Positions 51,392 through 62,359 of a DNA stretch of 64,000 nt are shown piece after piece; within the stretch, counting starts at the first letter, position 1; every line of letters begins with the position of its first letter. A program made the position numbers and the translations under genes. Below the pieces are notes generated by a model that saw only the letters and a program-made list of their open reading frames with translations, searched no databases and was not told the DNA's origin. Source of the DNA: Arthrobacter sp. V1I9. Its GTDB lineage: Bacteria; Actinomycetota; Actinomycetes; Actinomycetales; Micrococcaceae. The stretch is from assembly GCF_030817075.1 (NCBI RefSeq), contig NZ_JAUSYU010000001.1, positions 310,001 through 374,000 of the forward strand, given 5' to 3'.

Positions 51392-52126
51392 GTGTTGAGT
51401 CCATCAGGTAACGATCCCAAAGATCAGCTCCAGAGCATCCTGGTGGGTGCAGAGAATGGCGCTGAATTTCTCTCCGGACTCTCCAAGCTCGCCGCCGCTG
51501 CAGTTTCCGAGGAATCCGGCGACACCGTCGAGTGTGCGGTCACGGTCAAGGCAGGGCGCAGTCCCGCCACTGCCGCAGGGAGCAGCGAACGTGCGGTGGA
51601 GTTGGATCAGATCGAGCCGGCCGTTGGTGATGGTCCCTGCATGGCAGCGCTCCGGGAGATGTCACCGGTGCTGATTGACGACGTCGCTGCCGATAATCGG
51701 TGGCCGGAGTTGAACCGGAAGTTCGCCGAAGCGGGCGTGCTCAGCTCCTTAGGCGTGCCTTTGGAGATCAGCGGGAACGCCAAGGCCGCTCTGAACTTCT
51801 TTGCGTCCAGACCCGGCGCGTTCACTCCCAAGGTCTATGAAAAAGCCGTCGGCTTTGCCGCCGCCGCCCATAATGCTCTGCACCTCTCAGTCCGCATTAT
51901 CACTGCAGTGAACCGCGCGGAAGATCTGGAGGCGGCCATGCACGGCAGGACCGCCATCGACCTGGCGTGCGGGGTCATCATGGCGCAGAACAGGTGCTCA
52001 CAGGCAGAAGCGATGGCCATCCTCAGCAAAGTCTCCAGTAACCGCAACCAGAAACTGCGTGCCGTGGCCGTTGAACTGGTTGAACGGCTATCCGGCCACA
52101 GCATCCAAACCCACTTCGATGCCTAA
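51392..52126 (+). CDS. GAF-ANTAR RNA-binding regulator 4
   Basis: A 244-residue GAF-ANTAR protein. GAF about residues 15-165 (D-G-P-C-M-A-A-L, L-G-V-P-L-E-I-S-G-N); ANTAR about 180-240 (I-D-L-A-C-G-V-I-M-A-Q-N-R-C-S-Q-A-E-A-M, ending I-Q-T-H-F-D-A). The start is a GTG six bases after TAAGAT, so probably leaderless. A relic of a relative's first 45 residues lies at 41201-41349. Confidence 0.9.
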   Translation: MLSPSGNDPKDQLQSILVGAENGAEFLSGLSKLAAAAVSEESGDTVECAVTVKAGRSPATAAGSSERAVELDQIEPAVGDGPCMAALREMSPVLIDDVAADNRWPELNRKFAEAGVLSSLGVPLEISGNAKAALNFFASRPGAFTPKVYEKAVGFAAAAHNALHLSVRIITAVNRAEDLEAAMHGRTAIDLACGVIMAQNRCSQAEAMAILSKVSSNRNQKLRAVAVELVERLSGHSIQTHFDA

Positions 52127-52296
52127 GGGTCAGCGGTTTCCGGGATCCGCTTTTTCCAGAAAAAATGAGCCGACCATGACACGTCCTTTACTCCGGCACG
52201 ACGCCGATGGTCGGCGCCGCGTCCTGGTCCCGCCCGGCGCCGGTGGGCACCGGCGGGACCGGTGCTGATCCCTTCGACAGGTGGTGCCACACGGGG

Positions 52297-53334
52297 TCAG
52301 CGCCAGCCGAGCTGCGGCGCCACGTGCTTCAGGATCGACTCGATGACGTGGGCGTTGTAGTCCACACCGAGCTGGTTCGGGATCGTGAGTAGCAGGGTGT
52401 TTGCCGCGGCGATCGCCTCGTCCTCGGCCAGCTTCGCGGCCAACCCGTCGGGGGTATCCGCGTAGGACCGGCCAAAGACCGCGCGCGTTTTCTCGTCGAT
52501 GTTGCCCACCTGGTCGGCGCTGTGGCGGTCGCGGCCGAAGTATTTCCAGTCGCGTTCGTCCGTCAGTGCGAAGATGCTGCGGCTGACCGAGACACGTGGC
52601 TCCCGCTCGTGCCCCGCCTCCTTCCAGGCCTGCCGGTAGAGCTCGATCTGCTCGGCCTGCTGGACGTGGAAGGGCTTGCCGCTCTCGTCGTCCTTGAGCG
52701 TGGAACTCTGCAGGTTCATCCCGAGCTTCGCCGCCCAGATGGCCGTCGCGTTCGAGCCGGAACCCCACCAGATGCGCTCCCGCAGGCCCTCCGAGTACGG
52801 CTCCACGCGCAGCAGCCCCGGAGGGTTCGGGAACATCGGGCGAGGGCTCGGCGCCGCAAAGCCCTCTCCGGTGAGCACCTCGAGCAGACGCTCGGTATGC
52901 CTGCGGCCCATGTCGGCATCCGACTCGCCCTCGGCGGGGGCGAAGCCGAAGTAACGCCAGCCGTCGATGACTTGCTCGGGTGAACCCCTGCTGATGCCCA
53001 GCTGCAGTCGGCCGCCCGAGATAAGGTCGGCCGCGCCTGCTTCCTCAGCCATGTAAAGAGGGTTCTCGTAGCGCATGTCGATCACGCCGGTACCGATCTC
53101 TATGCGACTGGTCCGCGCCCCGATCGCAGCGAGCAGAGGAAACGGGGATGCGTATTGCTGCGCGAAGTGGTGGACGCGGAAGTAGGCGCCGTCAGCCCCC
53201 AGATCCTCAGCCGCGACCGCGAGGTCGATCGCCTGCAACAGCGCGTCCGACGCGTTGCGCGTGCCGGACCCGGGGTGATCGGTCCAATGGCCGAAGGACA
53301 GAAATCCGATGTTCTTCACACCAGAGGCCAACAT
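52297..53334 (-). CDS. LLM-class flavin-dependent oxidoreductase
   Basis: A 345-residue luciferase-like protein: N-I-G-F-L-S-F-G-H-W, F-R-V-H-H-F-A-Q-Q, E-I-G-T-G-V-I-D-M-R, D-L-I-S-G-G-R-L-Q-L-G-I-S-R-G-S-P, and G-S-G-S-N-A-T-A. It would use reduced FMN or F420 on an unknown substrate. The frame extends 90 codons upstream with implausible sequence; the ATG at 53334 begins the family similarity. It is a different subgroup from the LLM gene at 25972. Confidence 0.9.
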   Translation of the reverse strand: MLASGVKNIGFLSFGHWTDHPGSGTRNASDALLQAIDLAVAAEDLGADGAYFRVHHFAQQYASPFPLLAAIGARTSRIEIGTGVIDMRYENPLYMAEEAGAADLISGGRLQLGISRGSPEQVIDGWRYFGFAPAEGESDADMGRRHTERLLEVLTGEGFAAPSPRPMFPNPPGLLRVEPYSEGLRERIWWGSGSNATAIWAAKLGMNLQSSTLKDDESGKPFHVQQAEQIELYRQAWKEAGHEREPRVSVSRSIFALTDERDWKYFGRDRHSADQVGNIDEKTRAVFGRSYADTPDGLAAKLAEDEAIAAANTLLLTIPNQLGVDYNAHVIESILKHVAPQLGWR

Positions 53335-53697
53335 GATGGCAGCCGGCCATATTCCCCGGCGGAATCCCGGACTCGCACCCCTTCCCAAACAAGGGACGCC
53401 TCCGCCACAGCCGGAGATCCGGCCAGTCCATCGCCTCCCTGACAGGTGAACGGTTTCCGCGTGCGGGTTCGGGCCGGTAGTGCCGGATTTAGTCTTGCCC
53501 ATCAGCAACCTGGAACGGTTTCTGACCTCCCCGGGCCCGACGGACCAACCCACACGAAGAACTCGGTTGCGCTCCTCTCTGCCGGAGCTCCCGCCCATCT
53601 TCAAGAATCAATATCCCACTTCAAGGCGCAATTGCCGAGCAGTAGGCACAGCGTCATGCGGCTGGGAGATCTTGCCGTTTCTGACACAATGACGTGC

Positions 53698-54798
53698 ATG
53701 GGAATCCGTGCTTGGCCGTTTCTTTTGAAGTGGACAACGGTGGTGCCGGTACTGGCGATCGTGGCCTTGGTCGTGACCCGGGGCCGGGACCTGGGAATGG
53801 TGGCGGTGACAGTAGTTGCTGTACTGCTGGCAGGGGCGGTCCTGGCGGCGGTTCACCATGCCGAGGTAGTGGCCCATCGGGTAGGGGAACCCTTTGGCTC
53901 GCTGGTGTTAGCAGTGGCGGTAACGATTATCGAAGTGGCTCTGATTGTCACTCTGATGATCTCCGGCGGTCCTGAGACCGCTTCTCTGGCCCGCGATACA
54001 GTCTTCGCCGCCGTTATGATCACAACCAACGGTATTGTCGGGCTCTCCTTGTTGCTCGGCGCAATCCGGTACCGGTTGGCTGAATTCAATGCCGAGGGCA
54101 CCGGCGCGGCCCTGGCTACGGTCGCCACCCTGGCCACCCTGTGTCTGGTTCTGCCCACGTTCACAACCAGCACGCCCGGCCCGCAGTTTTCCACCACCCA
54201 GCTCGCCTTTGCCGCCGTGGCGTCTCTGGTGCTCTACGGCATGTTTGTCTCCACTCAGACCGTGCGCCACCGCGACTTCTTCCTACCTGTGGCCGCCACT
54301 GATACCGGGAAGACTGAGGGCGAACACGCACCTCCTCCCACCACTCAACAGACGGCCCTGAGCATCGGGCTACTGCTGGTGTCCCTTGTAGCCGTGGTCG
54401 GGTTGGCGAAAGTCGAATCTCCGGCCATCGAGGCCGGGGTTGCGGCCCTCGGCTTTCCTCATTCCTTTGTGGGCGTGGTAATCGCGCTACTCGTCCTTGC
54501 CCCAGAAACCTTGGCCGCAGCGAACGCAGCCCGTCGCAACCGCATCCAAATCAGCCTCAACCTCGCCCTGGGTTCTGCCATGGCAAGCATCGGGCTTACT
54601 ATCCCGGCCATAGCTATCGCCTCGATTTGGCTGGAAGGCCCCCTGCTGTTGGGCCTGGGTGCCACCCAAATCGTACTGCTGGCCCTCACCATCCTCGTAA
54701 GCGTGCTCACCGTGGTCCCCGGCAGGGCAACTCGTCTTCAAGGTGGTGTCCACCTCATCCTGCTGGCGGCCTTCCTCTTCCTCGCCGTCAGCCCCTGA
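53698..54798 (+). CDS. Ca2+/H+ antiporter (ChaA-type CaCA family)
   Basis: About 366 residues with 11 hydrophobic helices. The two inverted alpha-repeats of the cation/Ca2+ exchanger family are visible: V-A-V-T-I-I-E-V-A-L-I-V with I-T-T-N-G-I-V-G (first), and L-L-V-L-A-P-E-T-L-A-A-A-N-A with N-L-A-L-G-S-A-M-A-S (second); acidic residues in each bind the ion. It exports Ca2+ (or Na+) in exchange for protons. Starts at 53689 and 53698 are possible; neither has a ribosome site. The 277 bases downstream hold only a 16-base repeat. Confidence 0.9.
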   Translation: MGIRAWPFLLKWTTVVPVLAIVALVVTRGRDLGMVAVTVVAVLLAGAVLAAVHHAEVVAHRVGEPFGSLVLAVAVTIIEVALIVTLMISGGPETASLARDTVFAAVMITTNGIVGLSLLLGAIRYRLAEFNAEGTGAALATVATLATLCLVLPTFTTSTPGPQFSTTQLAFAAVASLVLYGMFVSTQTVRHRDFFLPVAATDTGKTEGEHAPPPTTQQTALSIGLLLVSLVAVVGLAKVESPAIEAGVAALGFPHSFVGVVIALLVLAPETLAAANAARRNRIQISLNLALGSAMASIGLTIPAIAIASIWLEGPLLLGLGATQIVLLALTILVSVLTVVPGRATRLQGGVHLILLAAFLFLAVSP

Positions 54799-55075: not shown

Positions 55076-55936
55076 TCAGCGTGGGCCTCGTTCGAGGTCC
55101 GCCAGCTCGGATTCCAGTTGCTGCGTCAGGGTCCGCAGGCGTCGGACGTGTTCCTGGGAGATAGGCGTCGGCTGCGACGTCACTTGTGCGTCGACGTCAA
55201 AGACGGTGTTGGGGCTGTGCCAGACGTTGAACCATTCGAGGCCGTGGCCCAGGGCGTCGCGTGTAACGCCTTGGAGCAGGAGCAGGGGTTCGCGGGTACT
55301 GGTATGGAGTTTGAGCGCCAGGTCAGCATCTGCGGCCACGGCCTGGACCTGTCTGGGTCCGCCTGCCGGATGGTAGCCGTGCTCCCGCATGAGGTTGAGC
55401 AGTGATGCGTTTTCCAGCAGTTCCTTGGTGAAGTGGGGAAAGAGATCCCGGGGAACCCAGGTTCTCATGAACGCTACCGGGACTTCTTCGAGGTAGCGGA
55501 TCCGTTCAATTTTCCATGTGTTGGTGGTGTTCAGTGCCTCTGCCGCTGATTCGGGCGGGGCGGCATGTTCGACGGCGACGACGTGGGTGCGCAGGCGCTG
55601 GCCGTGCGCGGCGGCCTGTTCATCCAGCCCACCGGCACGCTGGAGATGCCGGCGGAGGACCGGTGCGGCGGCCACGACGCTGCCGCGGCCGCGCTGGCGA
55701 CGGATCAGCCCGAGGTCGGACAGTCCGGACAAGGCCTGACGTACCACGCTGCGGGAAACACCGAACTGTTTCTGGAGTTCCTCTTCGGTGGGAAGGGGAG
55801 AACCGGGGAGCAGCGGCCGTTCCAGTATCTGCCGGTGCAGGATGTCCCGGATCTGCGCATGAAGGGGCGGCCCCTCCTCCCGATTCAGGCCGTTAGCCCG
55901 CTCCCGGGACTCTGCCCCGGCTGGTTGCACACTCAC
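55076..55936 (-). CDS. GntR-family regulator with UTRA domain
   Basis: About 286 residues. Winged helix at about 20-85: L-P-T-E-E-E-L-Q-K-Q-F-G-V-S-R-S-V-V-R-Q-A. UTRA ligand domain from about 110 (R-I-R-Y-L-E-E-V-P-V-A-F and W-V-P-R-D-L-F-P), the HutC subgroup type that binds sugar-phosphate-like effectors. GTG start at 55936 five bases after AAAGGAG. It is divergent from the permease/RuBisCO-like operon and is its probable repressor. Confidence 0.9.
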   Translation of the reverse strand: MSVQPAGAESRERANGLNREEGPPLHAQIRDILHRQILERPLLPGSPLPTEEELQKQFGVSRSVVRQALSGLSDLGLIRRQRGRGSVVAAAPVLRRHLQRAGGLDEQAAAHGQRLRTHVVAVEHAAPPESAAEALNTTNTWKIERIRYLEEVPVAFMRTWVPRDLFPHFTKELLENASLLNLMREHGYHPAGGPRQVQAVAADADLALKLHTSTREPLLLLQGVTRDALGHGLEWFNVWHSPNTVFDVDAQVTSQPTPISQEHVRRLRTLTQQLESELADLERGPR

Positions 55937-56022
55937 ACTGACTCCTTTGCCGCTCGAGCACATCATAGCCCGCACGCGTGGCATCTCCTGCTTGACGGGT
56001 GATCAAAACCACAGGTAATGTA

Positions 56023-56037
56023 CGTACTAATTGTACG
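56023..56037. promoter_or_regulatory. Inverted repeat CGTAC-TAATT-GTACG, probable GntR operator
   Basis: A perfect dyad with five-base arms and five-base spacer, extended by TGTACG on the left, located between the GntR gene and the permease start (56086). Confidence 0.55.
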
Positions 56038-56085
56038 GACTTGATCCGGCGACTGGAACATACAATGACGTAGAAAGGTCGAGTA

Positions 56086-57096
56086 ATGACTCAGCTGCAC
56101 TTGAGGGGCGGGCGCTCACGCCTACCAATGTTTGCCTTCCTCCAAAAGGTCCCCGCTGGCATGATGCTGATCCCGCTGATGCTGGGGGTGCTGATGAACA
56201 CCTTCGCGCCCGAAGCCCTGAAAATCGGCGGCTTCACCACCGCGCTGTTCAAGGAGGGGGCCCTGACACTGATCGCGGTGCTGATCCTCGCCACCGGCGC
56301 CCAGATCACCGGAAGCCACAGCGGCAAGGCTGCCGCCTCCACCACCACCGTTGTGCTGGTCTGCAAGACCCTGATCCCGGCCACGATTGCGGTGATCCTG
56401 GGCCTGATGGTCGGCATCGACGGCATCGCCGGGGTATCGATCCTGGCGATGCTGGCAATCTTCGGAAACAGCAACGGCGCCCTCTGGCTGGCGTTCGCCG
56501 GCCAGTACGGCGACGAGCGGGACACCGGCGCCTACGTCGCCAGCGCCTTTGATGACGGACCATTTCTGGCACTGATCTTCCTCGGCGCATCCGGGCTGGG
56601 CGACATCCCGGTGCTGGCCTTCGCCGCGGCATTGATTCCGTTCATCATCGGCCTCATCATCGGCGCAGTCGACCGGGAGTGGACGAAGGCCCTGGACCAC
56701 GTGCCGAACATCGTGATCCCGTTCATGTCCTTCGCCGTTGGCACCGGCATCAACCTGAAGACCGTGCTCACCGGCGGCTTCGCCGGGATCTTCCTCGGCC
56801 TGATAGTCGTCATCTTCACCGGAGGCCTGACCTACCTGGGATACCGGTTCGTCCTCAAGCGAGGCTTCAAGAGCGGCATCGGGTTCGCCGCCGGCACCAC
56901 GGCCGGCAACGCCGTCGCCGTACCCGCGGTAGTAGCCGTAGCCGACCCAAGATTCGAACCCTTCGTCGCCTCCGCCTCAGCCCAGGCCGCCACAGCCGTC
57001 CTCGTGACAGCACTACTCGCCCCAATCGTCGCCTCCTGGGCCCTGAAACGGGCAGGAGGCCTCCAGCCGGCCGACCCGGTCCCCACCGCAGTCTGA
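56086..57096 (+). CDS. 2-keto-3-deoxygluconate permease (KdgT-type)
   Basis: A 336-residue inner-membrane transporter with about ten helices. KdgT signatures: F-L-Q-K-V-P-A-G-M-M-L-I-P-L at the N-terminus, F-G-N-S-N-G-A-L, F-D-D-G-P-F near the middle and G-F-A-A-G-T-T-A-G-N-A-V-A near the end. Proton-linked uptake of sugar acids. First gene of the operon; the context suggests that its substrate is the sugar acid processed by the RuBisCO-like enzyme set rather than KDG itself. ATG after GAAAGGTCGAG. Confidence 0.9.
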   Translation: MTQLHLRGGRSRLPMFAFLQKVPAGMMLIPLMLGVLMNTFAPEALKIGGFTTALFKEGALTLIAVLILATGAQITGSHSGKAAASTTTVVLVCKTLIPATIAVILGLMVGIDGIAGVSILAMLAIFGNSNGALWLAFAGQYGDERDTGAYVASAFDDGPFLALIFLGASGLGDIPVLAFAAALIPFIIGLIIGAVDREWTKALDHVPNIVIPFMSFAVGTGINLKTVLTGGFAGIFLGLIVVIFTGGLTYLGYRFVLKRGFKSGIGFAAGTTAGNAVAVPAVVAVADPRFEPFVASASAQAATAVLVTALLAPIVASWALKRAGGLQPADPVPTAV

Positions 57097-57136
57097 ATAA
57101 AACCACCCCTACATCCCATTTATGGACGGAGAAACC

Positions 57137-58402
57137 ATGCGCGACCCGCGCTCGGTGCGTTGCACCTACTACCTGGAGTCCGAAATTGACCCTGCGAAGG
57201 CCGCAGCCATCATGGCGGGCGAGCAGTCAAGCGGCACCTTCCTGCCGGTACCCGGCGAGTCTGCACGTATCCGGGAGCGGCACGCCGCCCGCGTCTCGGA
57301 CGTTCAGGAGCTTGGCTTTTGCCGGCCCTCCCTGCCGTCACGGACAACCCCCGAGAAGGTCCGGGCCGCCCTTGTCACCGTCGATTTCCCCATGGAGAAC
57401 GTCGGCACGGACCTGGCCACCCTGCAGACCGCCATCGCCGGCAACCTCTTCGAACTGGGCGACCTTTACGCCTGCCGCCTGCAGGACATAGCCCTGCCCG
57501 AGGACTTCGTCGCCGCCCACGCTGGCCCGGCATTCGGCATCGAGGGGACGCGCAAGCTCATCAGCGACGTTCAGGGCGTCATGGTGGGCACCATCGTCAA
57601 ACCCAACGTCGGACTCTCGGAAGAGGAGTTCCGGCTGGTGGTCCGGGACCTGGCGTTGGCCTCCATCGACCTGATCAAGGACGACGAACTGATGACCGAC
57701 CCCGCCTACCTGCCGTTGGAGCGGCGGGTCGTGGTCGCCACTGAGGAAATCCGCGCCGCCGAGCAGGTTAGCGGCCACTCCACCATGTACGCCTTCAACA
57801 TCACCGGTGACCTCGCCGGACTGCAGAAGCGCCACGACCTGGTCGTTGAAGCAGGCGGCACTTGCGTGATGCTGAACATCCCCGTGATGGGACTGCCCGC
57901 CCTGGCCATGCTGCGCAGCTTCGCCGAGGTACCGATCCACGGCCACCGGGCAGGCCTTGCGGCCTCGATGCGGTCCAAGGCCCTTGGCATGGACTACCGG
58001 GTCTGGCAGCAGATGGCCCGCCTCGCCGGCGCCGACCACCTGCACGCCAGCGGGCTCGGCAGCAAGTTCTACGAACTGGACGAAGAGGTCGCCGCAAACA
58101 TCCGCAGCCTCCTCGAACCCCTCGGACAGACCATCGCGCCGCTGCCTGTCCTGTCCTCCGGGCAGAACGTCACCACCCCCGGACCCACCTTCGACGCCGT
58201 AGGATCCACGGACCTGATGATGCTCGCCGGCGGCGGCGTCGCAGCCCACCCGGACGGTCCCGGCGCCGGGGTGCGAAGCCTGCGCCAAGCCTGGGAAGCA
58301 GCCGTGTCCGGGGTACCCCTCCAGGCGGCAGCGAAAAAGCAGTCCGAAACCGGTGACGATGCACTCCTGCACGCCGTCCAAACCTTCGGAAAAGGTGCCT
58401 GA
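57137..58402 (+). CDS. RuBisCO-like protein (form IV large-subunit homologue)
   Basis: A 421-residue homologue of the RuBisCO large chain. Active-site equivalents retained (usual spinach numbering in brackets): E29 (E60), N103 (N123), K155 (K175), K181-D-D-E184 (carbamylated K201 with D203/E204), H270-R271 (H294-R295), H303 (H327), K310 (K334). K177 is replaced by N157, so it is probably not a CO2-fixing enzyme. Form IV proteins perform enolisation/decarboxylation-type chemistry; with a DUF1537 kinase next door, the nearest known case is OiaX, 3-oxo-isoapionate-4-phosphate decarboxylase of apionate catabolism. That match is inferred. ATG at 57137 follows GGAG; an upstream ATG at 57122 lacks one. 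Confidence 0.9.
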   Translation: MRDPRSVRCTYYLESEIDPAKAAAIMAGEQSSGTFLPVPGESARIRERHAARVSDVQELGFCRPSLPSRTTPEKVRAALVTVDFPMENVGTDLATLQTAIAGNLFELGDLYACRLQDIALPEDFVAAHAGPAFGIEGTRKLISDVQGVMVGTIVKPNVGLSEEEFRLVVRDLALASIDLIKDDELMTDPAYLPLERRVVVATEEIRAAEQVSGHSTMYAFNITGDLAGLQKRHDLVVEAGGTCVMLNIPVMGLPALAMLRSFAEVPIHGHRAGLAASMRSKALGMDYRVWQQMARLAGADHLHASGLGSKFYELDEEVAANIRSLLEPLGQTIAPLPVLSSGQNVTTPGPTFDAVGSTDLMMLAGGGVAAHPDGPGAGVRSLRQAWEAAVSGVPLQAAAKKQSETGDDALLHAVQTFGKGA

Positions 58403-58403
58403 C

Positions 58404-59702
58404 ATGCCCGCTTTTGGATTCGTCGCAGACGACCTCACCGGAGCCGCCGACGTCCTGGCCCAGTCCCACCGCTACGGACTCGAAGCTGTCCTGGTCATTG
58501 GCGACGCGCCCCTGCCCGCCGATGCTGACGTCGTCGGAATCGCCGGACCCTCCAGGTCCCTGGCAGGGACGGCATTCGACACCCTGGTACGCAGGGATCT
58601 GGCCGGCATCGCACCGCTGAACCTGGAAGTGCTGCTCTACAAGGTCTGCTCCACCTTCGACAGTTCGACCACGGTCGGAAGTATCGGCCGCGGAATCCAG
58701 CTTCTCCATGAGCAATTCCCCCTGCACGGCCCCATCCCGGTCGTTCCGGCCCAACCGGCCTTTGGCCGCTACACCGCTTTCAGTAACCACTATGCGGCAC
58801 ATGCCGGCCAGGTCTACCGGCTGGACCGCCACCCGGTCATGTCCGGGCATCCGTCCACCCCCATGGCCGAGGCCGACCTGCGCCAGGTCCTCGCTGAACA
58901 GCTCGGCACCGGGGACGTTCCCGGTGCCATCCACCTGCCCGCCTATGAGGACGGCACCTTCAAGGACGCCTGGGCCGACCGGCGGCGGGAGCCCGGAGCG
59001 CAGGCCTTTGTTGTGGACGCCGTGGACGAACGCCACATGGACGCCGTCGCCGAAGCACTGACGCGCGAGGAACACGGGCACGGTCCTTCCGTGGTGGTCG
59101 GCTCCGGCGGAATCATGGCAGCGCTGGCGCGGTCCATCTCGGACCAGACTCCGCGCGGGCCTGGACCGCAGCAGCCATCAGGACCCGTGCTGGCCATCAG
59201 CGCCTCTGCCTCCAGCACCACAGCCGAACAGATCAACGACGCCGTTTCCCAGGGTTGGGAGGACGTGCCCGTATCGGCCGAGCTGCTGCACGGACACGAC
59301 GCCGCGGCCGTAGCCGCCCTGGACCGCCGCGTTTCAGCAGCCCTTCAGAAGGGCCGGAACGTCATCGTCCACACCACCCGAGGACCGGGGGATCCCCGTT
59401 ACGGGGCCGCCAAACCGGCTGATGCCGGCTACGTCGGAGCACTGATCGGAGGGATTGCCGCCCGCATGGCCACAGCCGGCCTCACCCGGGACATCGCCGT
59501 GTGCGGCGGAGATACCTCCAGCCACGCACTCATCGCTATGGGCGTCCGCGAACTGCGCGTCTCCGACCAGTTCGTCACCGCAGGCCCGGTCCTGCAGGCT
59601 GACGGCGGCTCCGCCGTCGCCGGCTGCCGCTTGCTGCTCAAGGGCGGACAGGTCGGTCCCATCAACATCCTGCGCCGCTTCGCCGGCCAACTTCCCGACT
59701 GA
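58404..59702 (+). CDS. DUF1537 four-carbon acid sugar kinase (OiaK-like)
   Basis: A 432-residue kinase. The N-terminal domain opens with F-V-A-D-D-L-T-G-A-A-D-V (sugar-acid binding) and has D-S-S-T-T-V-G; the C-terminal nucleotide domain has V-V-G-S-G-G-I, S-A-S-A-S-S-T-T, H-T-T-R-G-P-G-D-P, and C-G-G-D-T-S. Such kinases phosphorylate C4 acids or 3-oxo-isoapionate ahead of decarboxylation or aldol cleavage. The start is one base after the RuBisCO-like stop, so expression is tightly coupled and the product is likely that enzyme's substrate. Confidence 0.9.
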   Translation: MPAFGFVADDLTGAADVLAQSHRYGLEAVLVIGDAPLPADADVVGIAGPSRSLAGTAFDTLVRRDLAGIAPLNLEVLLYKVCSTFDSSTTVGSIGRGIQLLHEQFPLHGPIPVVPAQPAFGRYTAFSNHYAAHAGQVYRLDRHPVMSGHPSTPMAEADLRQVLAEQLGTGDVPGAIHLPAYEDGTFKDAWADRRREPGAQAFVVDAVDERHMDAVAEALTREEHGHGPSVVVGSGGIMAALARSISDQTPRGPGPQQPSGPVLAISASASSTTAEQINDAVSQGWEDVPVSAELLHGHDAAAVAALDRRVSAALQKGRNVIVHTTRGPGDPRYGAAKPADAGYVGALIGGIAARMATAGLTRDIAVCGGDTSSHALIAMGVRELRVSDQFVTAGPVLQADGGSAVAGCRLLLKGGQVGPINILRRFAGQLPD

Positions 59703-59755
59703 TACCCATCCAAGCATTCCCCACGCATCACCAGAACCAATGAAAGGCGGCCCCC

Positions 59756-60799
59756 ATGCGGGCAGTAGTCAAAACCGCGGCCGAACGAGGCGTTGAATAC
59801 GTCACCGACGCCGGAGACCCCAAAGCATCAGAAGGCACAGTCGTCATCGAGGTAGGCGCCGCCTCCCTCTGCGGCACAGACCGGGAACTGTATGAATGGA
59901 CCCCCTCCGCGCAGGCCTTCAACCTCAACCTCCCTGTCATCCTGGGCCATGAAGGCGCAGGCACCGTAGTCGAGGTCGGGCCCGGCGTCAGCGGACTGAA
60001 GGTGGGTGACCAGGTAGCACTTGAAAGCCACTTGACCTGCGGGCAGTGTTTCCCCTGCCGCACAGGAGATGCCCACACCTGCGAAAACACAGGCATCCTG
60101 GGCATGCATATCGACGGCGTCTTCGCCCAATACGCCGCCGTGCCGCAGGACATCTGCGTCAAGCTCCCCACCGGACTGTCCCTTGAGTCCGGCGCCCTGC
60201 TCGAAGCGGCCGGCGTCGCAGTCCACGCCATCCAGCGCGCCAACTACTCCGTAGCAGGACGGGCCGTTCTCGTCAGCGGCGCAGGCCCCGTCGGTTTGGT
60301 GGTCGTGAACCTGGCACTGCTCATGGGCGCCTCCCACGTCATCGCCGTCGACCCCAACCCCTACCGGCGCGCCCAAGCCGAAAAACTCGGCGCCATCGCA
60401 CTGCACCCCAACGACGGCATCGTCGAACGCTGCCGTGAACTGACAGGCCGCCGCGGCGGCTTCGACGTCGCCTTCGAATGCTCCGGAGCCCCCGGCACCT
60501 TGGCAACACTCTTCGAAGCCGTCCGCCGTGAAGCCACCGTCGTCACCGTCGGCCACCCGAGCCGACCCGCAGAAGTCGACATCGCAGCCCACATCAACAA
60601 AAAAGGCATCACCCTGCGCGGAATCTTCGGGCGCCGCCTTTGGGAAACCTGGGAACAAAGCCTCCTGCTCCTGGACTCCGGCAAGCTCGAGCTCGACTGG
60701 CTCATCACCCACCGCAAGAAACTCAGCCAATTCGATGAAGCCGTCGAACTCCTCACCGGAGACGCCTGCAAAGTCCTGCTCATCCCGGGCCTCGGCTGA
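59756..60799 (+). CDS. Zinc-dependent sugar/polyol dehydrogenase
   Basis: A 347-residue medium-chain dehydrogenase like threonine or sorbitol dehydrogenases. Catalytic zinc: Cys in L-C-G-T-D, His-Glu in L-G-H-E-G-A-G. Structural zinc: C-G-Q-C-F-P-C and Cys seven residues on. Cofactor loop G-A-G-P-V-G-L, with Asp in A-V-D-P-N favouring NAD. Last gene of the operon; it probably oxidises the sugar acid to the 3-oxo acid the kinase uses. Good GAAAGGCGG before the ATG. Confidence 0.9.
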   Translation: MRAVVKTAAERGVEYVTDAGDPKASEGTVVIEVGAASLCGTDRELYEWTPSAQAFNLNLPVILGHEGAGTVVEVGPGVSGLKVGDQVALESHLTCGQCFPCRTGDAHTCENTGILGMHIDGVFAQYAAVPQDICVKLPTGLSLESGALLEAAGVAVHAIQRANYSVAGRAVLVSGAGPVGLVVVNLALLMGASHVIAVDPNPYRRAQAEKLGAIALHPNDGIVERCRELTGRRGGFDVAFECSGAPGTLATLFEAVRREATVVTVGHPSRPAEVDIAAHINKKGITLRGIFGRRLWETWEQSLLLLDSGKLELDWLITHRKKLSQFDEAVELLTGDACKVLLIPGLG

Positions 60800-60845
60800 C
60801 CATAGCCCAAACCGCTGAACCGTCCAGCGTCGCATCAAAGAGACC

Positions 60846-60879
60846 AAGCGGGGTGTGCATATGCGATGCACCCCCGCTT
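60846..60879 (+). terminator. Hairpin ending the RuBisCO-like operon
   Basis: AAGCGGGGTGTGCAT pairs with ATGCACCCCCGCTT (one G-U and a bulge), 47 bases after the last stop. TTCCTCTTC follows rather than a pure T run. Confidence 0.6.
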
Positions 60880-61120
60880 CCTCTTCACAAATGAGCGCCA
60901 AACGAGCGGAGAGCTCCACAGGTCAACGGGGCGTTCCCACACCAAGCGATGCTCCGTATGAAGCTGCTGGCCGCTCTACCGTCCATCCAGGGGCCGGTCA
61001 CGACAGCTCAGAAGTGTAGCGGGCGTACAGGTCCGGCAGGCAGCCCACCGGCCAGGGCGGGAGCAGCATCATAGTGCCCCGATTCCCCAAAGTGAAAACC
61101 GGCATGGGACAATGGCAAGG

Positions 61121-62359
61121 ATGACTTCCCCCACTCCTTCCTCTGAAACCGCCCGCGCCCGCCAACAGGGCGGCGCGCCGGCCGACAGCACCCGCCCGCA
61201 GGTCCTCCCCACCGCCGAGGGCTGGGAGCAGGCGCGCACTGTCGAGGGCCGTCCGCTGCTCCAGTTCGCGTCCCCGCGGGTGAAACAGCCGCCAACGCAC
61301 CTGGCCGACCTGACCCTGGCCGAGCGTGCCGAGAAGCTGAAGGAGCTTGGCGTCCCTGCCTTCCGGGCCAAGCAGCTCTCCACGCACTACTTCCAGCACT
61401 GGACCACGGACCCGGAAGCCATGAGCGATCTGCCCAAGGTTGGCCGCGAAGAGCTCGTCTCCCAGATGTTCCCGCCGCTGCTCACCGAGGTCCGCCGCCT
61501 CCGCACGGACAAAGGGGACACCATCAAGTTCCTCTGGCGGCTCTTCGACGGTGCGCTGGTGGAGTCCGTGCTGATGCGCTACCCCGGCCGCATCACCCTC
61601 TGCGTTTCCTCGCAGGCCGGCTGCGGAATGAACTGCCCCTTCTGTGCCACCGGCCAGGCCGGGCTGACCCGCAACATGTCCACCGCGGAGATCGTTGACC
61701 AGGTGGTTGCTGCGAACCGCGCCATCGCGGCAGGCGAGCTGGGCGAAAACGAGCACGACGGCGAGCGGGTCACCAACATCGTCTTTATGGGGATGGGCGA
61801 GCCGCTAGCCAACTACAAGCGAGTGATGGGCGCTCTCCACCGCTTTGTGGACCCCTCGCCGGAGGGCCTGGGCATGTCGGCCCGGAACATCACGGTCTCC
61901 ACGGTGGGCCTGGTCCCTGCCATCCGCAAGCTTGCGGAGGAGGACCTGCCGGTCACCTTTGCGCTGTCCCTGCACGCTCCCGACGACGAGCTCCGCGACG
62001 AGCTGATCCCGGTCAACAACCGGTGGAAGGTGGACGAGGCGCTCGACGCGGCCTACAACTACTACCGCAAGACTGGCCGCCGGGTCAGCATCGAGTACGC
62101 GCTGATCAAGGACATGAACGACCACCCCTGGCGTGCAGACCTGCTGGCCAAGAAGCTGAACCAGCGCGGCCGCGGCTGGGTGCACGTAAACCCGATCCCG
62201 CTCAACCCGACCCCGGGCTCCATCTGGACCGCCTCGGAAAAGCCGGTGGCGCAGGAGTTCATTGAGCGGCTCCGCGCCGCCGGGGTGCCCTGCACCCTGC
62301 GCGACACGCGCGGCAAGGAGATCGACGGGGCCTGCGGGCAGCTGGCTGCCGCCGACTAA
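61121..62359 (+). CDS. rlmN: 23S rRNA (adenine2503-C2)-methyltransferase RlmN
   Basis: A 412-residue radical-SAM methyltransferase that methylates A2503 of 23S rRNA and also some tRNAs. The iron-sulfur site is C-G-M-N-C-P-F-C (Cys-x3-Cys-x2-Cys) near residue 170; G-M-G-E-P-L-A-N is the SAM-binding glycine motif; Cys in T-L-R-D-T-R-G-K near the end and an earlier Cys act in the ping-pong mechanism. An N-terminal extension of about 45 residues is usual in actinobacteria. ATGs at 61112 and 61121 are both possible; GACAAT upstream suggests a start at or near the transcription start. This is core housekeeping, marking the return from accessory DNA. Confidence 0.95.

What the first reader, a model, noticed from the sequence alone, without database searches (positions are those of the whole stretch)
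56019..60879. RuBisCO-like protein embedded in a GntR/KdgT/DUF1537/Zn-dehydrogenase operon
The gene at 57137 keeps nearly all active-site equivalents of RuBisCO, including the carbamylation site K-D-D-E and the loop-6 lysine, but has Asn for K177. It is one base from a DUF1537 kinase and shares an operon with a sugar-acid permease and a zinc dehydrogenase under a divergent GntR-UTRA repressor. Known logic (OiaK phosphorylates, OiaX decarboxylates a 3-oxo-isoapionate) fits, but the usual apionate lactonase and oxidoisomerase are absent, so the substrate may be a different branched or C4-C6 acid. A predicted route is uptake, oxidation to a 3-oxo acid, phosphorylation, decarboxylation.
Basis: partly seen in the sequence, partly recalled or inferred. 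Interest (0 to 1): 0.85.

Follow-up and report, generated by a model that had tools for sequence, protein, structure and literature searches.

The report
RuBisCO-like sugar-acid breakdown operon
A soil actinobacterium carries a compact set of genes in which a relative of RuBisCO, the plant CO2-fixing enzyme, most likely helps to eat a branched plant sugar acid, possibly the backbone of the molecule that plants make to switch RuBisCO off at night.

Summary
A GntR-UTRA repressor lies divergent to KdgT permease, RuBisCO-like protein (RLP), DUF1537 kinase and zinc dehydrogenase; RLP and kinase genes are one base apart. The unit is a conserved but patchy actinobacterial module: in 30 of 30 relative loci examined, kinase, Zn-dehydrogenase and a KdgT-family permease accompany the RLP (GntR in 27). 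The RLP belongs to the OiaX-like (3-oxo-isoapionate) superclade but to its own clade (support 100/100), far below the OiaX cut-off (363 versus 700 bits). It keeps E60, N123 and H327, which the 9 OiaX rows examined have lost and the 55 other OiaX-like rows keep. I therefore expect hydrolytic C-C cleavage to 3-phosphoglycerate rather than plain decarboxylation. No apionate-oxidoisomerase-like or lactonase-like gene was found in the genome. The dehydrogenase is nearest to L-threonine 3-dehydrogenases, fitting uptake, C3 oxidation, phosphorylation, RLP cleavage. My leading substrate is D-hamamelonate (2-carboxy-D-arabinitol), whose 3-oxo 5-phosphate is RuBisCO's six-carbon intermediate minus one phosphate; an RLP in a D-hamamelose pathway is already published for another bacterium. 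Reactions and substrate are inferred, not shown. Verdict: new variant of the known DUF1537/RLP acid-sugar module.

The parts
55076..55984 (-). GntR-family repressor with UTRA ligand domain, divergent
   Evidence: Pfam UTRA 80.3, GntR 66.3 bits; found in 27 of 30 relative loci
56023..56037 (.). candidate operator palindrome CGTAC-TAATT-GTACG
   Evidence: only copy in the window, none in 100 shuffles; the form CGTAC-N5-GTACG in 8 of 28 GntR-upstream regions, window included; 3 places in the whole genome against 7 for the reversed control pattern, so candidate only
56086..57096 (+). KdgT-family sugar-acid permease
   Evidence: Pfam KdgT 342.7 bits; below the KdgT equivalog cut-off, 195.6/453.8; KdgT family in 30 of 30 loci, two subtypes (12 at 70% or more, 18 under 50% identity)
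57137..58402 (+). RuBisCO-like protein, predicted C-C cleaving enzyme on a phosphorylated 3-oxo acid
58404..59702 (+). DUF1537 (four-carbon acid sugar kinase family) kinase, OiaK-like
   Evidence: Pfam SBD_N/NBD_C; OiaK 186.6/700 bits; its clade matches the RLP clade
59756..60799 (+). zinc-dependent dehydrogenase, threonine-3-dehydrogenase-like, predicted C3 oxidation
   Evidence: Pfam ADH_N/ADH_zinc_N; best NCBIfam tdh 287.1/458.35; the top five PDB sequence matches are named L-threonine 3-dehydrogenase (two of them 'probable'), 249.5 to 201.1 bits, next best 137.6; in 30 of 30 loci

Best explanation
The operon degrades a C2-branched sugar acid. Steps: (1) the acid enters by the KdgT-type permease; (2) the TDH-like Zn-dehydrogenase oxidises the C3 hydroxyl to a 3-oxo acid; (3) the DUF1537 kinase phosphorylates the terminal hydroxyl; (4) the RLP, with carbamylated Lys181 and Mg2+, cleaves the phosphorylated 3-oxo acid as RuBisCO does with its carboxylated intermediate, giving 3-phosphoglycerate plus a small acid (glycerate or glycolate); (5) GntR-UTRA releases the operon when the acid or an intermediate binds. 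Leading substrate: D-hamamelonate (2-carboxy-D-arabinitol). Shown by sequence: gene set, its conservation, the clade, kept and changed residues, no match to apionate-type genes. Inferred: every reaction, the regulator's ligand and the substrate. My rough odds: step order 0.75; cleavage to 3-phosphoglycerate rather than plain decarboxylation 0.55; hamamelonate 0.3.
For: Unit conserved in 30 of 30 loci (29 genomes or records counting EpRS71 once; seven named actinobacterial families). RLP and kinase of these loci each form one clade with support 100 and a long stem. E60/N123/H327 kept in 15 of 15 clade rows and 55 of 55 non-OiaX relatives, lost in 9 of 9 OiaX rows; also kept in two Xanthobacter RLPs, the genus of one of the two characterised RLPs named in a review (passage). 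A second lineage pairs RLP and DUF1537 kinase with KdgT permease and one short-chain dehydrogenase (3 of 18 annotated regions). Pyruvate kinase within 9 kb of the RLP in 4 of 18 annotated regions suits a 3-phosphoglycerate product. Four of the 120 listed close relatives carry the JGI name transcarboxylase/hydrolase (automatic naming). Clade-unique residues sit at the barrel mouth, 8 of 9 (expected 4.0, P 0.006, post hoc). An RLP in a D-hamamelose pathway giving 3-phosphoglycerate and glycolate is reported (passages).
Against: No gene for the second product is recognised as conserved in the unit, and pyruvate kinase is labelled near only 1 of the 30 actinobacterial loci. RLPs in apionate-type gene contexts are scattered over the tree (8 label changes for 9 rows), so context and clade do not map one to one. 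In Arthrobacter EpRS71 an ApnL-like gene lies about 9 kb from one of its two RLP units. The AU test does not reject a tree joining this clade to OiaX (p 0.15). The published hamamelose RLP and the X. autotrophicus RLP were not retrieved. The dehydrogenase's position specificity is inferred from its nearest relatives, and it is below the threonine dehydrogenase cut-off.
Confidence: 0.5

Rival explanations
1. It is an apionate/isoapionate operon: the RLP acts on 3-oxo-isoapionate 4-phosphate, as decarboxylase (OiaX) or transcarboxylase/hydrolase, and isoapionate is oxidised directly by the Zn-dehydrogenase.
For: RLP and kinase fall in the same superclade as OiaX and OiaK-type proteins. Several non-OiaX RLPs sit with some or all of the PGDH_C, Gfo/Idh/MocA and large hypothetical genes that I label ApnO/ApsD/ApnL from recall. 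In Arthrobacter EpRS71 ApnL-like, NanR-like and PGDH_C genes lie about 9 to 21 kb downstream of one of its two RLP units.
Against: No PGDH_C and no ApnL-like match in the window's genome; three control genomes ring for both. In EpRS71 the PGDH_C gene directly follows a TIM-barrel gene, possibly its own RLP-free decarboxylase (role recalled). Clade-unique pocket residues; RLP and kinase far below the OiaX/OiaK cut-offs.
Confidence: 0.2
2. The substrate is a linear C4-C6 3-oxo acid (for example 3-oxo-tetronate or 3-oxo-pentonate); the RLP replaces the class II aldolase-type decarboxylase OtnC and gives a ketose phosphate and CO2.
For: The kinase family includes 3-oxo-tetronate kinases (model NF043035; window kinase 129.7/350). 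OtnC-like genes lie near four of the 30 loci and an OtnK-like gene near one.
Against: Where OtnC-like genes occur they come in addition to the complete RLP unit; E60/N123/H327 are kept, unlike in the OiaX decarboxylases.
Confidence: 0.2
3. The RLP is a methionine-salvage enolase (MtnW) or an autotrophic RuBisCO.
For: Shares the fold and the metal-site residues with both.
Against: MtnW model 146.2/513.6, form III model 226.5/497.45 bits; K177, T173 and W66 changed; separated from the MtnW and RuBisCO rows with support 97; sugar-acid gene context in 30 of 30 loci.
Confidence: 0.02

Closest known systems
3-oxo-isoapionate-4-phosphate decarboxylase OiaX with kinase OiaK (D-apiose catabolism, Carter et al. 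2018; paper not read, known from citations and recall)
   Same: RLP next to DUF1537 kinase; acid-sugar catabolism; same superclade
   Different: Separate clade; 363/700 bits; E60/N123/H327 kept where OiaX rows have D/G/Q; no oxidoisomerase-like or lactonase-like gene found; KdgT permease and TDH-like Zn-dehydrogenase instead
3-oxo-isoapionate-4-phosphate transcarboxylase/hydrolase (Xanthobacter autotrophicus RLP; which of the two reactions belongs to which RLP is my recall, the review passage names both together)
   Same: Two other Xanthobacter RLPs keep E60, N123, H327, K334 as ours does
   Different: 45% identity to the X. flavus protein; L instead of W at the H298 position and N instead of S at the I382 position; no apionate-type genes. 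The X. autotrophicus protein itself was not retrieved
RLP of the D-hamamelose pathway, Ochrobactrum anthropi (Kim, Lim and Lee 2018)
   Same: Reported to end in 3-phosphoglycerate and glycolate (passage in PMC8914248); hamamelonate is the acid form of that sugar
   Different: The paper was not read and its protein not retrieved; relation of sequence and gene set unknown
DUF1537 four-carbon acid kinase pathways (3-oxo-tetronate kinase with OtnC; D-threonate kinase; recalled from Zhang et al. 2016, not held)
   Same: Kinase family; phosphorylation before C-C bond breakage
   Different: RLP in place of OtnC; kinase well below the 3-oxo-tetronate (129.7/350) and D-threonate kinase (72/450) cut-offs
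PDB 3nwr, RLP of Burkholderia fungorum
   Same: Closest solved structure, 41-43% identity, TM 0.89/0.93
   Different: Groups with the TRAP-linked RLPs, for whose loci labels no KdgT and no Zn-dehydrogenase

Membership tests
OiaX decarboxylase (NF042437) | score over the curated equivalog cut-off (700 bits) | tested here: not met
   363.3 bits; controls: L106 780.2 and 15 of 199 order genomes over the cut-off
OiaX decarboxylase (NF042437) | OiaX residue pattern D60/G123/Q327 (derived here) | tested here: not met
   E/N/H in 15 of 15 clade rows, D/G/Q in 9 of 9 OiaX rows
OiaX decarboxylase (NF042437) | apionate oxidoisomerase and lactonase in the genome | tested here: not met
   no PGDH_C and no ApnL-like match in G000; G395, G396 and G398 ring; the 14 named control genomes did not ring for PGDH_C
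3-oxo-isoapionate-4-P transcarboxylase/hydrolase | RuBisCO catalytic residues kept (except K177) | tested here: met
   E60, N123, K175, K201, D203, E204, H294, H327, K334 kept
3-oxo-isoapionate-4-P transcarboxylase/hydrolase | forms 3-phosphoglycerate and glycolate from 3-oxo-isoapionate 4-phosphate (products recalled) | not testable with these tools
   needs an enzyme assay
D-hamamelose pathway RLP | homology to the O. anthropi RLP and its gene cluster | not tested
   sequence not identified among the calls made; known only from citing passages
RuBisCO forms I-III | K177 and family cut-offs | tested here: not met
   N157 at K177; form III model 226.5/497.45 bits, PRK04208 209.3/438, PRK13475 139.2/489
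MtnW enolase | family cut-off and clade | tested here: not met
   146.2/513.6 bits; apart from the MtnW row L121 in the tree (L121 identified)
DUF1537 kinase family | SBD_N and NBD_C domains over Pfam cut-offs | tested here: met
   162.8/25 and 75.1/28.3 bits
OiaK kinase (NF042436) | curated equivalog cut-off | tested here: not met
   186.6/700 bits; the Rhizobium L108 kinase reaches 526.5, also below
L-threonine 3-dehydrogenase | curated equivalog cut-off | tested here: not met
   287.1/458.35 bits, though nearest among solved structures
KdgT 2-keto-3-deoxygluconate transporter | Pfam KdgT family; TIGR00793 equivalog | tested here: inconclusive
   Pfam family met 342.7/25, equivalog not met 195.6/453.8

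The most novel reading that the evidence does not exclude
Actinobacteria use a RuBisCO relative to eat 2-carboxy-D-arabinitol (D-hamamelonate), the backbone of the plants' night-time RuBisCO inhibitor CA1P: after C3 oxidation and 5-phosphorylation the substrate is RuBisCO's own six-carbon intermediate minus the 1-phosphate, and the RLP finishes the hydrolytic half of the RuBisCO reaction to give 3-phosphoglycerate and glycerate (or 3-phosphoglycerate and glycolate after decarboxylation and oxygenation).
Probability: 0.25. Interest if true: 0.75.

Novelty: new variant of a known kind. Interest (0 to 1): 0.5.

Why it matters
It defines a coherent actinobacterial RLP subfamily, seen in Arthrobacter, Pseudarthrobacter, Rhodococcus, Streptomyces, Pseudonocardia, Geodermatophilus and others, whose listed names are mostly generic 'ribulose-bisphosphate carboxylase large chain' or 'RuBisCO large subunit C-terminal-like'. 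A residue signature (E60/N123/H327 kept versus lost) gives a testable split between hydrolase-like and decarboxylase-like RLPs. If the substrate is 2-carboxyarabinitol, an enzyme of the RuBisCO family would recycle the backbone of RuBisCO's own inhibitor. In the listings of four searches of an open-access library I saw no title on bacterial degradation of that acid; the D-hamamelose paper of Kim et al. is known to me only through citing papers.

Tried and rejected
MtnW and autotrophic RuBisCO were rejected on cut-offs, residues and tree. Plain OiaX membership was rejected. I first suspected that pyruvate kinase was a conserved member of the actinobacterial unit; it is labelled near only 1 of the 30 loci, so it counts only as a hint from 4 of 18 annotated regions of mixed groups. 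I tested whether Arthrobacter EpRS71, where a PGDH_C gene rang, links our unit to apionate: the result is ambiguous. The PGDH_C gene is about 21 kb and an ApnL-like gene about 9 kb from one of two RLP units; between stand a NmrA-like gene, SDR-labelled genes, a NanR-like gene and several that I did not identify. An operator-based regulon search gave three places in the genome against seven for the reversed control, so it is uninformative beyond the operon. Promoter-like sites: 2 found, shuffles 0.6; terminator-like: 1 found, shuffles 2.9; not used. The AU test did not reject joining the clade to OiaX.

The barrel-mouth test was defined after I had seen the clade-specific positions, so its P values are optimistic; the three thresholds gave 8 of 9 (P 0.006), 10 of 13 (P 0.014) and 12 of 15 (P 0.003).
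Full report
What is there. The window lies in a 4.05 Mb single-contig genome (window = C1:310001-374000). The RLP stop and the kinase start are separated by one base. The genome has one RuBisCO-family match and three DUF1537 kinases, ours included.

Conservation. A scan of named genomes with the RLP gave 70 loci, of which 29 (L036-L064) are close actinobacterial relatives (64-95% identity). With the Rhodococcus plasmid locus L032 that makes 30; L039 and L041 come from one genome, and L054 and L055 have near-identical surroundings, so they are not all independent. In all 30 a kinase (within 3 kb) and a Zn-dehydrogenase (within 4 kb) lie on the RLP's strand and a KdgT-family permease lies in the same fetched stretch; GntR was found in 27. 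Of the three without a GntR match, L054 carries a DeoR-type regulator, and L055 and L056 have a gene of the same cluster. The permease comes in two subtypes, 12 loci with at least 70% and 18 with under 50% identity to ours, before or after the enzymes; exchange of one KdgT subtype for another argues that a sugar acid is carried. The unit is patchy: of 245 genomes of the family 6 (our own included) have a close copy at 81% identity or more, one has a 49% relative and one a spurious fragment. In the class sample 12 of 394 genomes have an OiaX-like RLP above 360 bits, none over the 700-bit cut-off; two of the 12 are of this clade, the others are 44-48% identical to ours (8 of those 10 placed in the tree).

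Clade. In an 86-row tree (84 of the 153 RLP-bearing sequences extracted, plus two PDB sequences) the KdgT-linked actinobacterial RLPs including ours form one clade, support 100, stem 0.79. They stand apart from the OiaX clade (support 100, stem 0.87), a GH127-linked clade (8 of its 10 rows have that gene labelled), a TRAP-linked clade holding PDB 3nwr, and other actinobacterial RLPs. RLPs in apionate-type contexts do not form one group: nine rows need eight label changes, so context and clade do not map one to one, which is a caution for any assignment by clade. A careful tree of 58 rows (21 of 79 dropped for speed) gives 100/100 for our clade; a tree joining our clade to OiaX is 12.2 log units worse but not rejected, p 0.15. 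In a 61-row kinase tree our loci again form one clade, support 100, stem 0.76, and the TRAP- and GH127-linked kinases do too, but the two OiaX-linked kinases do not group together. So for our unit RLP and kinase have travelled as a pair. NCBIfam scores: RLP 363/700 for OiaX, kinase 187/700 for OiaK and 130/350 for 3-oxo-tetronate kinase, dehydrogenase 287/458 for threonine 3-dehydrogenase, permease 196/454 for KdgT. None of the four reaches a named equivalog.

Active site. Against spinach numbering (recalled), all 15 clade rows keep E60, T65, N123, K175, K201, D203, E204, H294, R295, H327, K334, G403 and G404; they have N at K177, I at T173, F at W66 and Q at G381. The nine OiaX rows (7 over the cut-off, plus the two annotated loci L106 and L107) have D60, G123 and Q327; all 55 other OiaX-like rows keep E, N and H like ours. 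Two Xanthobacter RLPs keep E, N and H too. [quoted passage not shown] that the second reaction belongs to Xanthobacter is my reading and recall. The simple reading is that OiaX lost residues needed for carboxylation and hydrolysis, while our clade kept them. Our clade differs from all 64 other OiaX-like rows at nine barrel-domain positions; eight lie at the C-terminal mouth of the barrel strands of the model, expected 4.0, P 0.006 (post hoc). Two positions are telling: N344 next to Q343 (others mostly W, S or T) and, nearly unique, L274 at the H298 position (others mostly W, F or Y). Loss of bulky groups there suggests a larger or differently shaped substrate. This is inference; no ligand was modelled.

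Why probably not apionate. The genome has no PGDH_C (oxidoisomerase-type) match and no ApnL-like match; the same searches rang in three control genomes. The links PGDH_C = ApnO, Gfo/Idh/MocA = ApsD and large hypothetical = ApnL are recalled. Arthrobacter EpRS71 has two copies of our unit (L039, L041). Beside one of them lie an ApnL-like gene at about 9 kb (29% identity) and a PGDH_C gene at about 21 kb; the PGDH_C gene directly follows a xylose-isomerase-like TIM-barrel gene, which may be the RLP-free decarboxylase of that pathway (recalled), and genes of other or unknown kinds stand between. This neighbour could be read either way; the other copy shows no such genes within 10 kb.

What it does instead. 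The dehydrogenase is nearest to L-threonine 3-dehydrogenases (top five PDB matches, 249.5 to 201.1 bits; next best 137.6), enzymes that oxidise the C3 hydroxyl of a C2-substituted acid. One such oxidation, one phosphorylation and one RLP step make a complete route. A second lineage has assembled the same functions from other parts: LysR, RLP, kinase, short-chain dehydrogenase and KdgT permease in Rhizobium Pop5, Agrobacterium CG920 and Rhizobium etli NXC12 (3 of 18 annotated regions fetched). Pyruvate kinase stands within 9 kb of RLPs in Rhodococcus DMU1, Bradyrhizobium elkanii, Cupriavidus pinatubonensis (with enolase) and Azospirillum oryzae (4 of 18), which suits 3-phosphoglycerate as product, though it is labelled near only 1 of the 30 actinobacterial units. 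The genome has two glycerate kinases over the cut-off and a GlcD-like protein below it (380.5/567.9), so glycerate or glycolate could be used.

Substrate. The six-carbon acid that fits KdgT uptake, C3 oxidation, terminal phosphorylation and RuBisCO chemistry is D-hamamelonate, that is 2-carboxy-D-arabinitol. Its 3-oxo 5-phosphate is RuBisCO's carboxylated intermediate without the 1-phosphate (chemistry from general knowledge). A review passage says that plants convert hamamelose to 2-carboxyarabinitol and that in several species its pool in the light greatly exceeds that of CA1P in the dark; the identity of CA1P with D-hamamelonic acid 2'-phosphate is the title of a paper in its reference list (PMC9833046). 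[quoted passage not shown] PMC8914248 (passages) says that in Ochrobactrum anthropi the RLP does the last step, linked to 3-phosphoglycerate and glycolate. I have not read Kim et al. and did not identify its protein. This raises the odds for hamamelonate here and lowers the novelty of the idea.

Judgement. A real, conserved, to my knowledge uncharacterised actinobacterial variant of the DUF1537/RLP acid-sugar module (DUF1537/RLP pairs as such were noted by Zhang et al. 2016, recalled); mechanism likely, substrate a good but unproven candidate.

Noticed in passing
L067, L068, L070, L072-L074, L082, L084, L092, L099, L100, L113: RLPs beside a GH127-type (beta-L-arabinofuranosidase) gene in 12 loci (DUF1537 kinase labelled in 11, GH78 in 7), from Acidobacteria, Gammaproteobacteria and Croceibacterium: a separate RLP clade in pectin-type clusters, no ApnO labelled in them.
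   Followed up: partly
L075, L077, L079-L081, L083, L085-L088, L090, L093-L098, L102: 18 loci with LacI regulator, TRAP transporter genes, RLP and kinase (clade holding PDB 3nwr); no dehydrogenase labelled directly in the unit, though some conserved ORF clusters were not identified. The imported acid may already be a 3-oxo acid.
   Followed up: partly
L033:8946-18256: Streptomyces plasmid with Zn-dehydrogenase, RLP and DUF1537 kinase inside a GH28/GH78/GH2 cluster.
   Followed up: no
L112:8983-13204: Haloarchaeal plasmid RLP-kinase pair with Zn-dehydrogenase and cupin genes.
   Followed up: no
L159:12445-14500: Arthrobacter EpRS71 TIM-barrel (AP_endonuc_2) gene directly before a PGDH_C gene, with an ApnL-like gene at L159:2223-4094: candidate RLP-free apionate pathway in a genome that has two RLP units.
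   Followed up: partly
G000:C1:2748517 and 3404450 (L155, L154): Two further DUF1537 kinases elsewhere in the window's genome.
   Followed up: no
window 51392-54798 and 61112-62359: Flanks: a radical-SAM protein with RlmN-type N-terminal domain (just below its cut-off) downstream; upstream a Na/Ca-exchanger family protein (53446-54798), a luciferase-like monooxygenase (52297-53604, minus) and a GAF-ANTAR protein (51392-52126).
   Followed up: no
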